34,882 bases of DNA. Source: Candidatus Uhrbacteria bacterium. Its GTDB lineage: Bacteria; Patescibacteriota; Patescibacteriia; 2-12-FULL-60-25. Positions 31,348-31,615 of this stretch are shown here, one piece after another. The notes beneath the pieces are model-generated. The model did no database searches and was not told the DNA's origin. It was given only the letters and a program-made list of their open reading frames with translations. The translations under genes and the position numbers were made by a program. The stretch is from assembly GCA_016203535.1 (NCBI GenBank), contig JACQMO010000010.1:1-34882 (forward strand). Reading direction: 5' to 3'. Positions within the stretch are counted from its first letter, which is position 1, and every line of letters begins with the position of its first letter.

Positions 31348-31394
31348 CCCGCCAGCAACAAACCCCGCTCAAGGCGGGGCTTATTGCTGGCGGG
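31348..31394 (-). terminator. Nested hairpin at the 3' end of tRNA-Asp
   Basis: An inner stem CCCCGC/GCGGGG (31363-31368, 31374-31379) followed on the minus strand by TTTGTT is a terminator for the tRNA transcript. It sits inside an outer perfect 11-bp stem, 31348-31358 with 31384-31394, whose 5' arm on the minus strand is the tRNA 3' end including CCA. Confidence 0.7.
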
Positions 31395-31465
31395 TGCGAA
31401 GGGATTCGAACCCTCGATCTTCTCCGTGACAGGGAGACGTGTTAACCGGGCTACACCACGCACCC
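31388..31465 (-). tRNA. tRNA-Asp (GTC)
   Basis: A full cloverleaf: acceptor GGGTGCG/CGCACCC, D stem GTGT/ACAC, anticodon stem TCTCC/GGAGA around the 7-nt loop CTGTCAC (anticodon GTC), T arm GAGGG-TTCGAAT-CCCTT. The discriminator is G73, the Asp identity base, and the 3' CCA is encoded (31388-31390). It lies downstream of the tRNA-like copy. Confidence 0.95.
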
Positions 31466-31491
31466 AGGCGTGAGTTCTTCTTTTCTCGTTG

Positions 31492-31567
31492 AGCGTGCGA
31501 AGGGATTCGAACCCTCGATCTCCCCGATGGCCATCGGGGCGTGTTAACCGGGCTACACCACGCACCC
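31492..31567 (-). tRNA. tRNA-like copy of tRNA-Asp with palindromic 8-nt-loop anticodon arm
   Basis: Identical to the neighbouring tRNA-Asp in the 5' acceptor strand, D arm, variable loop and T arm, but the anticodon arm is replaced by an 18-nt palindrome: stem CCCCG/CGGGG with the 8-nt loop ATGGCCAT. After U33 the next bases are GGCC, so the anticodon could be GGC (Ala), GCC (Gly) or a four-base GGCC. The 3' acceptor strand has one mismatch (CGCACGC), the discriminator is T, and no CCA is encoded. It may be a pseudogene or a non-canonical tRNA. Confidence 0.7.
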
Positions 31568-31586: not shown

Positions 31587-31615
31587 AGGTTATCACGCTT
31601 TTTTTTGAACCGCAA
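31587..31615 (-). promoter_or_regulatory. Promoter of the tRNA pair
   Basis: TTGCGG (31610-31615) and TAACCT (31587-31592) with a 17-nt spacer on the minus strand; the start site would be about 13 nt before the first tRNA base. Confidence 0.5.

What the first reader, a model, noticed from the sequence alone, without database searches (positions are those of the whole stretch)
31492..31567. tRNA-Asp copy whose anticodon arm is an 18-nt palindrome with an 8-nt loop
Two tandem tRNA genes are identical across D arm, variable loop and T arm, but the upstream one has CCCCG-ATGGCCAT-CGGGG in place of the Asp arm. Its loop is 8 nt, one more than normal, and after U33 reads GGCC. Tandem duplication followed by exact replacement of one arm is unusual. 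An 8-nt loop is known from +1 frameshift-suppressor tRNAs. Lack of CCA, a U discriminator and one acceptor mismatch argue for a pseudogene or another role, such as a mobile hairpin inserted in a tRNA copy.
Basis: partly seen in the sequence, partly recalled or inferred. Interest (0 to 1): 0.7.

Follow-up and report, generated by a model that had tools for sequence, protein, structure and literature searches.

The report
Broken tRNA copy left by a nuclease-linked element
A disabled second copy of a tRNA gene in a tiny uncultured bacterium (Candidatus Uhrbacteria) is best read as the footprint of an apparently undescribed kind of mobile DNA, found across its phylum, that breaks a tRNA gene, sits next to a small GIY-YIG nuclease gene and leaves an intact replacement tRNA beside it.

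Summary
Window 31492-31567 (-) is a tRNA-Asp copy whose anticodon arm is exactly replaced by CCCCGATGGCCATCGGGG. As RNA it folds as a 7-bp stem with a 4-nt loop, so it is not a frameshift-suppressor loop. It is not a curiosity of this contig. In Candidatus Uhrbacteria and across Patescibacteria, tRNA copies with the anticodon arm swapped for a 16-20-nt hairpin recur: 29 copies of 8 isotypes, plus 6 in a second set. The stems are always 7-9 bp and covary strongly. Each copy lies beside an intact tRNA of the same isotype. Upstream copies keep the 5' half; downstream copies keep the 3' half. Many flank a small GIY-YIG nuclease gene. Of the best homologues of the nuclease at this genome's own tRNA-Arg, 28 of 29 (class) and 24 of 28 (phylum) lie within 300 bp of a same-strand tRNA, mostly with fragments of that tRNA alongside. 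Asp versions with the nuclease still present exist (L242, L233, G012). A congener has the same neighbourhood with a lone tRNA-Asp. Best reading: the nuclease-less left end of a tRNA-invading, tRNA-rescuing element. Cleavage, mobility and the hairpin's job are untested. Closest known analogue: the fungal mitochondrial mORF.

The parts
31492..31567 (-). Disabled tRNA-Asp copy (left, promoter-proximal copy): 5' half + hairpin + 3' part
   Evidence: ARAGORN '???', Rfam tRNA 42.4 bits; counterparts in G013, G025, G030 and, with a GIY-YIG gene, in L233 and L242
31540..31567 (-). Retained 5' half (tRNA positions 1-28), identical to the intact copy
   Evidence: (T1-72 match at -102); identical to the linked intact copy in 4 genomes, including the changed acceptor of G025
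31522..31539 (-). Replacement hairpin CCCCGATGGCCATCGGGG in place of the anticodon arm
   Evidence: fold -10.5 kcal/mol; pairing kept with compensatory changes across relatives
31492..31521 (-). Retained 3' part (variable loop, T arm, damaged acceptor; no CCA, U73)
   Evidence: alignment
31466..31491 (-). 26-nt spacer between disabled and intact copy; too short for a separate promoter, so the two copies are probably co-transcribed (inference)
31388..31465 (-). Intact tRNA-Asp(GTC) with encoded CCA, the rescue copy
   Evidence: (67.0 bits)
31348..31393 (-). Terminator-like hairpin downstream of the intact tRNA
   Evidence: read from sequence
31590..31595 (-). Putative -10 (TGATAA) upstream of the disabled copy, resembling the TGATAC upstream of lone tRNA-Asp genes in relatives
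   Evidence: read from sequence; compare leaders; not tested

Best explanation
The copy is the left end of a tRNA-invading mobile element that has lost, or never carried, its nuclease gene at this locus. In the complete form, a small GIY-YIG nuclease gene and a full intact copy of the same tRNA occupy the interior of a host tRNA gene. The host gene's promoter and 5' half stay upstream, and its 3' half and terminator are left downstream, or only one side survives. The anticodon arm (sometimes the D or T loop) of the disabled flanks is replaced by a self-complementary hairpin. The intact copy keeps the cell alive. SHOWN: the anatomy, its recurrence, the association with GIY-YIG genes, presence/absence at one locus within the genus, and conserved pairing of the hairpin. 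INFERRED: that the nuclease cuts intact tRNA genes, that repair copies the element in (homing), and that the hairpin removes the cut site and/or stops the dead copy from folding with or acting like the live tRNA.
For: 1) Direct Asp counterparts with the nuclease: L242 = 5' half + GTCCGATGTGACATCGGAC + GIY-YIG ORF + intact tRNA-Asp; L233 = pseudo-Asp(GGCCGCACTGCTGCGGCC) + GIY-YIG + pseudo-Asp + intact tRNA-Asp; G012 = 5' half + GIY-YIG + intact tRNA-Asp. Pfam GIY-YIG 52-65 bits. 2) The window's own genome has the nuclease-bearing form at tRNA-Arg(gcg) (G000:C19). 3) Less biased count: 9 of 22 small GIY-YIG genes on four contigs of three genomes lie within 300 bp of a same-strand tRNA; random placement gives 0.31 on average and never reached 9 in 20000. 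4) Best homologues: 28/29 in the class and 24/28 in the phylum are tRNA-adjacent, 24 and 17 with fragments of that same tRNA. 5) Upstream copies keep 5' halves, downstream copies keep 3' halves; in three Ala loci the outer gene is split inside the anticodon loop, T36/37 or T34/35. 6) G001, same genus, has the same neighbourhood with a lone tRNA-Asp. 7) Hairpin arms: 18 distinct sequences, 98.6% of cells paired, 22 double-changed cells, 0/500 shuffles.
Against: No GIY-YIG gene lies in the window contig, so the link rests on comparison. Three relatives in genus g13 also have the Asp pair without a nuclease, and four genomes have a Thr pair without one, so the nuclease-less form is common and may have its own function. 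The intact inner tRNA equals the presumed target, so self-protection is unexplained. Cleavage and mobility were never observed. The best-homologue counts start from a tRNA-linked query, and about half of the small GIY-YIG genes in three genomes are not tRNA-linked.
Confidence: 0.66

Rival explanations
1. The hairpin-armed copy is a functional, host-kept leader RNA: a tRNA-shaped, anticodon-less domain at the 5' end of the tRNA transcript that steers folding, processing or dosage of the following tRNA, independent of any mobile element.
For: The Thr-Tyr tRNA operon keeps a hairpin-armed pseudo-Thr after the same TPR-protein gene in four genomes of two genera, with a compensatory A-T to G-C change in the hairpin and no nuclease. 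The 5' half tracks the intact copy even where that copy changed (G025 Asp). The tandem transcript can pair the pseudo copy's 5' acceptor strand with the real 3' acceptor strand.
Against: Absent in the congener G001 at the same locus and in most tRNA-Asp loci of the family. Downstream copies lack a 5' end and cannot be leaders. The nuclease association would be unexplained.
Confidence: 0.15
2. Small mobile palindromes (REP- or RPE-like) insert into or replace loops of structured RNA genes; the tRNA pair is an ordinary duplication whose spare copy tolerated a palindrome, and GIY-YIG elements are a separate matter.
For: The same apex hairpin also sits inside terminator stems. L186 shows pure hairpin insertions in D and T loops.
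Against: The replacement is exactly the anticodon arm in many independent copies, with many different hairpin sequences, which is not one palindrome family inserting at random. Copies are otherwise often identical to the live tRNA, and the nuclease linkage is strong. Terminator apices may simply be convergent stable hairpins.
Confidence: 0.13
3. A functional tRNA with an 8-nt anticodon loop: a +1 frameshift suppressor or a recoded Ala/Gly tRNA.
For: The cloverleaf is otherwise intact; ARAGORN reads ggcc.
Against: The loop bases pair; no CCA, U73, acceptor mismatch; Ala(GGC) and Gly(GCC) exist elsewhere. Relatives carry different hairpins in the same place with no kept anticodon.
Confidence: 0.02
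4. Attachment-site remnant of a tyrosine-recombinase island that integrates at the anticodon arm.
For: tRNA anticodon arms are classic attB sites (general knowledge); split 5' and 3' halves flank inserts.
Against: Inserts are only a few hundred bases and hold a GIY-YIG gene and a whole tRNA. The window around the pair holds ordinary genes in the same order as in G001. No integrase was noticed among the loci read; this was not systematically searched.
Confidence: 0.04

Closest known systems
Mobile ORFs (mORFs) of fungal mitochondrial genes (Allomyces atp6; Glomus atp6/atp9/cox2/nad3), PMC3630166
   Same: A homing-type nuclease gene (LAGLIDADG or GIY-YIG) inside an essential gene; the insert brings a replacement for the interrupted part and the native part is displaced alongside
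   Different: Host gene here is a tRNA in bacteria; a whole copy is supplied rather than a C-terminus; hairpins replace arms of the displaced halves; activity not tested here
rRNA insertion sequences of CPR bacteria with LAGLIDADG homing endonucleases, PMC11270868
   Same: Same group of bacteria; nuclease-bearing inserts in essential RNA genes
   Different: Those are mostly intron-like and are in rRNA; here no intron was found (Rfam) and function is rescued by a second gene copy, not by splicing
Free-standing phage nuclease SegB acting near phage tRNA genes, PMC13096335
   Same: A homing endonuclease tied to tRNA genes and segmental amplification (abstract); tandem copies are seen in L168 and L174
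   Different: Phage; no hairpin-armed or split host tRNA described in the abstract read
Small Slx1/UPF0213-type GIY-YIG proteins
   Same: Closest solved sequences to the own-genome nuclease include UPF0213 (1zg2) and SLX1 (6seh), besides Tako8
   Different: Those are not linked to tRNA genes as far as known; similarity is weak (E 0.004 to 0.05)
Rickettsia palindromic elements and REP sequences (from memory, not tested)
   Same: Small palindromes that turn up in RNA genes
   Different: Here the palindrome exactly replaces one tRNA arm and its sequence is not fixed

Membership tests
mORF-type nuclease element that replaces part of its host gene | Nuclease gene of a homing family within or beside the interrupted host gene | tested here: met
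   GIY-YIG ORFs within tRNA loci; not present at the window locus itself
mORF-type nuclease element that replaces part of its host gene | Displaced native part plus a supplied functional part | tested here: met
   Disabled halves flank an intact tRNA; at the window: disabled copy + intact copy
mORF-type nuclease element that replaces part of its host gene | Element-free allele in a close relative | tested here: met
   G001 same neighbourhood, lone tRNA-Asp; one relative only
mORF-type nuclease element that replaces part of its host gene | Supplied part is of foreign origin | tested here: inconclusive
   Inner and outer copies are usually identical; L229 differs, 91% and 97.5% over the halves
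mORF-type nuclease element that replaces part of its host gene | Nuclease cuts the element-free allele | not testable with these tools
   Needs protein and DNA assay
tRNA group I intron | Intron structure in the anticodon loop | tested here: not met
   No intron family match at the window locus; the feature is a separate gene copy
+1 frameshift-suppressor tRNA | Open 8-nt anticodon loop on a mature, chargeable tRNA | tested here: not met
   Loop pairs; acceptor damaged, no CCA
REP/RPE-type mobile palindrome | One conserved palindrome sequence dispersed at varied sites | tested here: inconclusive
   A shared motif exists, but arm hairpins differ widely and sit at one structural position

The most novel reading that the evidence does not exclude
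A phylum-wide class of minimal mobile elements in Patescibacteria that live only in tRNA genes and work by hairpin exchange: a Slx1-like GIY-YIG nuclease acts on the hairpin arms that tRNA genes form in DNA, swaps or inserts palindromic hairpins there, and is tolerated because each event is coupled to an intact duplicate of the tRNA. The window copy would be the minimal, nuclease-less form.
Probability: 0.2. Interest if true: 0.9.

Novelty: new variant of a known kind. Interest (0 to 1): 0.72.

Why it matters
tRNA genes are the best-known landing sites for mobile DNA, but an element that breaks a tRNA gene, supplies a spare and marks the wreck with a structure-conserved hairpin was not found described in the literature searched. 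If confirmed, it explains split, nested and hairpin-armed tRNA copies in Patescibacteria, gives an assignable role to many unannotated small GIY-YIG genes, and warns that tRNA counts and odd anticodons in these genomes include disabled copies. It also makes a clean question testable: how a nuclease aimed at an essential gene avoids cutting the rescue copy beside it.

Tried and rejected
Frameshift-suppressor or missing Ala/Gly tRNA. Assembly error (independent assemblies). A tRNA group I intron at the window locus; the split tRNA-Thr elsewhere in the genome also gave no intron match. A single dispersed palindrome as the whole story: the arms have too many sequences. Homologues of the own-genome nuclease in phage records: none. 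Correlation of palindrome number with GIY-YIG number per genome: none apparent by eye in 8 genomes. A tight phylum-wide pattern for hairpin arms found only 3 of 287 genomes; it was too strict to estimate frequency.

Full report
OBSERVATION. On the minus strand, tRNA-Asp(GTC) lies at 31465-31388 and, 26 nt upstream of it, a second tRNA at 31567-31492 that ARAGORN cannot assign. Both pass Rfam's tRNA threshold, at 67.0 and 42.4 bits. The upstream copy repeats the first 28 nt and the variable loop and T arm, but TCTCCCTGTCACGGAGA has become CCCCGATGGCCATCGGGG. It has a mismatch in the acceptor stem, U73 and no CCA. As RNA the new arm is a 7-bp hairpin with a 4-nt loop, so the 8-nt loop is not an open anticodon loop. 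The genome has separate tRNA-Ala(GGC) and tRNA-Gly(GCC) genes.

RELATIVES. Three species of another genus in the family carry the same pair, hairpin copy then intact tRNA-Asp, with CCCCGGTGTCCACCGGGG or CCCCGGTGGACACCGGGG. The closest held relative, G001 of the same genus, has the same neighbourhood (S1-type protease gene, tRNA-Asp, EVE-domain gene, pyruvate kinase), but a lone tRNA-Asp. So the copy varies between species in one genus and recurs in other genera.

THE PATTERN BEHIND IT. The hairpin motif is found in 14 of 41 family genomes, against none for the reversed pattern. It occurs in terminators and in tRNA copies. Reading those loci showed a rule. A disabled copy upstream of the intact tRNA keeps its 5' half; a disabled copy downstream keeps its 3' half, often with CCA and a terminator. 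Examples are Ala(GGC) in G027, Arg(GCG) in G013, and Pro(CGG) and Arg(GCG) in the window's own genome. A scan of all loci held gave 29 copies with the anticodon arm replaced, covering Ala, Arg, Asp, Gly, Ile, Pro, Thr and Val. All arms are 16-19 nt with 7-9-bp stems; five further rows had ordinary arms. Six more came from the phylum-wide sample, with arms of 18-20 nt. Among 18 distinct 18-nt arms, 98.6% of cells are paired and 22 show changes on both sides, with 0 of 500 shuffles reaching that. The hairpin is therefore kept as a structure while its sequence drifts. At the Thr-Tyr operon this holds after the same upstream gene in four genomes of two genera. At other loci the D or T loop is broken by hairpins instead.

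THE NUCLEASE. Between or beside these copies there is often a small ORF with a GIY-YIG domain. In the window's own genome a complete example sits at tRNA-Arg(gcg) on contig C19: 5' half + TCCCGACGTGACGTCGGGA, intact tRNA, terminator, GIY-YIG ORF, then the hairpin again at the contig end (Pfam 50.6 bits). On four contigs of three genomes, 9 of 22 small GIY-YIG genes lie within 300 bp of a same-strand tRNA, where chance gives 0.31 and never reached 9 in 20000 placements. With the own-genome protein as query, 126 of 286 genomes of the class and 84 of 192 of the phylum sample have homologues. Of the best loci, 28 of 29 and 24 of 28 have a same-strand tRNA within 300 bp, and 24 and 17 of them carry fragments of that very tRNA. 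These counts start from a tRNA-linked query, so one search is the less biased estimate.

ASP EQUIVALENTS. L242 reads 5' half, GTCCGATGTGACATCGGAC, GIY-YIG ORF, intact tRNA-Asp. L233 reads pseudo-Asp, GIY-YIG, pseudo-Asp, intact tRNA-Asp, each pseudo copy with GGCCGCACTGCTGCGGCC. G012 reads 5' half with D-loop hairpins, GIY-YIG, intact tRNA-Asp. The window is the same layout without the nuclease. In three tRNA-Ala loci of other families (L213, L218, L229) the outer gene is split inside the anticodon loop. The insert, bounded by TCCCGAT/ATCGGGA-like ends, holds the nuclease and a whole tRNA.

MECHANISM. Shown: anatomy, recurrence, linkage, one presence/absence pair, structural conservation. Inferred: the nuclease cuts the element-free tRNA gene; repair from an occupied copy brings in the element; the intact copy rescues the cell; the hairpin abolishes the cut site or keeps the dead copy from pairing with the live tRNA. 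The last idea is suggested by the tandem fold, where the first copy's 5' acceptor strand pairs with the second's 3' strand. Unexplained: why the rescue copy is not cut, and why nuclease-less pairs persist.

COMPARISON. The closest known arrangement is the fungal mitochondrial mORF, where a homing nuclease inserts into an essential gene with a replacement end and displaces the native one (PMC3630166). Patescibacterial rRNA inserts with LAGLIDADG nucleases are known (PMC11270868). No paper on tRNA-gene elements of this form was found in the library searched. That library lacks most subscription journals, so absence there is weak evidence.

VERDICT. The feature is a member of an apparently undescribed, phylum-wide arrangement, probably a mobile element; the exact mechanism is open.

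Noticed in passing
L094:1315-1580 and L149:2700-3292 (G000 contig C28): The genome's only tRNA-Thr(GGT) found appears split by a roughly 190-nt insert right after the GGT anticodon; the insert begins after U and ends in G like a group I intron, but Rfam gives no match. Just upstream are two overlapping ORFs that by eye look like a frameshifted LAGLIDADG-type nuclease; Pfam found only a weak helix-turn-helix.
   Followed up: partly
L188 (G030), around 1570-1820: tRNA-Ile nested inside another copy of tRNA-Ile that is split exactly in the anticodon loop (T1-36 and T37-77), with imperfect inverted repeats at the insert ends and no nuclease gene.
   Followed up: partly
L144 (G025): tRNA-Ala(GGC) followed by three tandem copies of hairpin + 3' half + CCA, two of them with the same terminator repeated, without a nuclease gene.
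   Followed up: no
L079, L085, L095-L099, L104, L107, L112 and others: Many terminators in the family share the apex CCCGRTGNNCAYCGGG inside variable outer stems, the same hairpin as in the tRNA copies.
   Followed up: partly
L168, L170, L174, L175: The GIY-YIG reading frame runs into the downstream disabled tRNA and appears to stop at the TAG of its D-arm region (read by eye).
   Followed up: no
L007 (after tRNA-Phe) and L017 (after tRNA-Met), G000: Short antisense fragments of the tRNA's own 3' end lie just downstream of the terminator.
   Followed up: no
L089, L090, L111: Sequence resembling the T-box GGGTGGAACCGC element next to the same hairpin; Rfam at gathering threshold found nothing.
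   Followed up: partly
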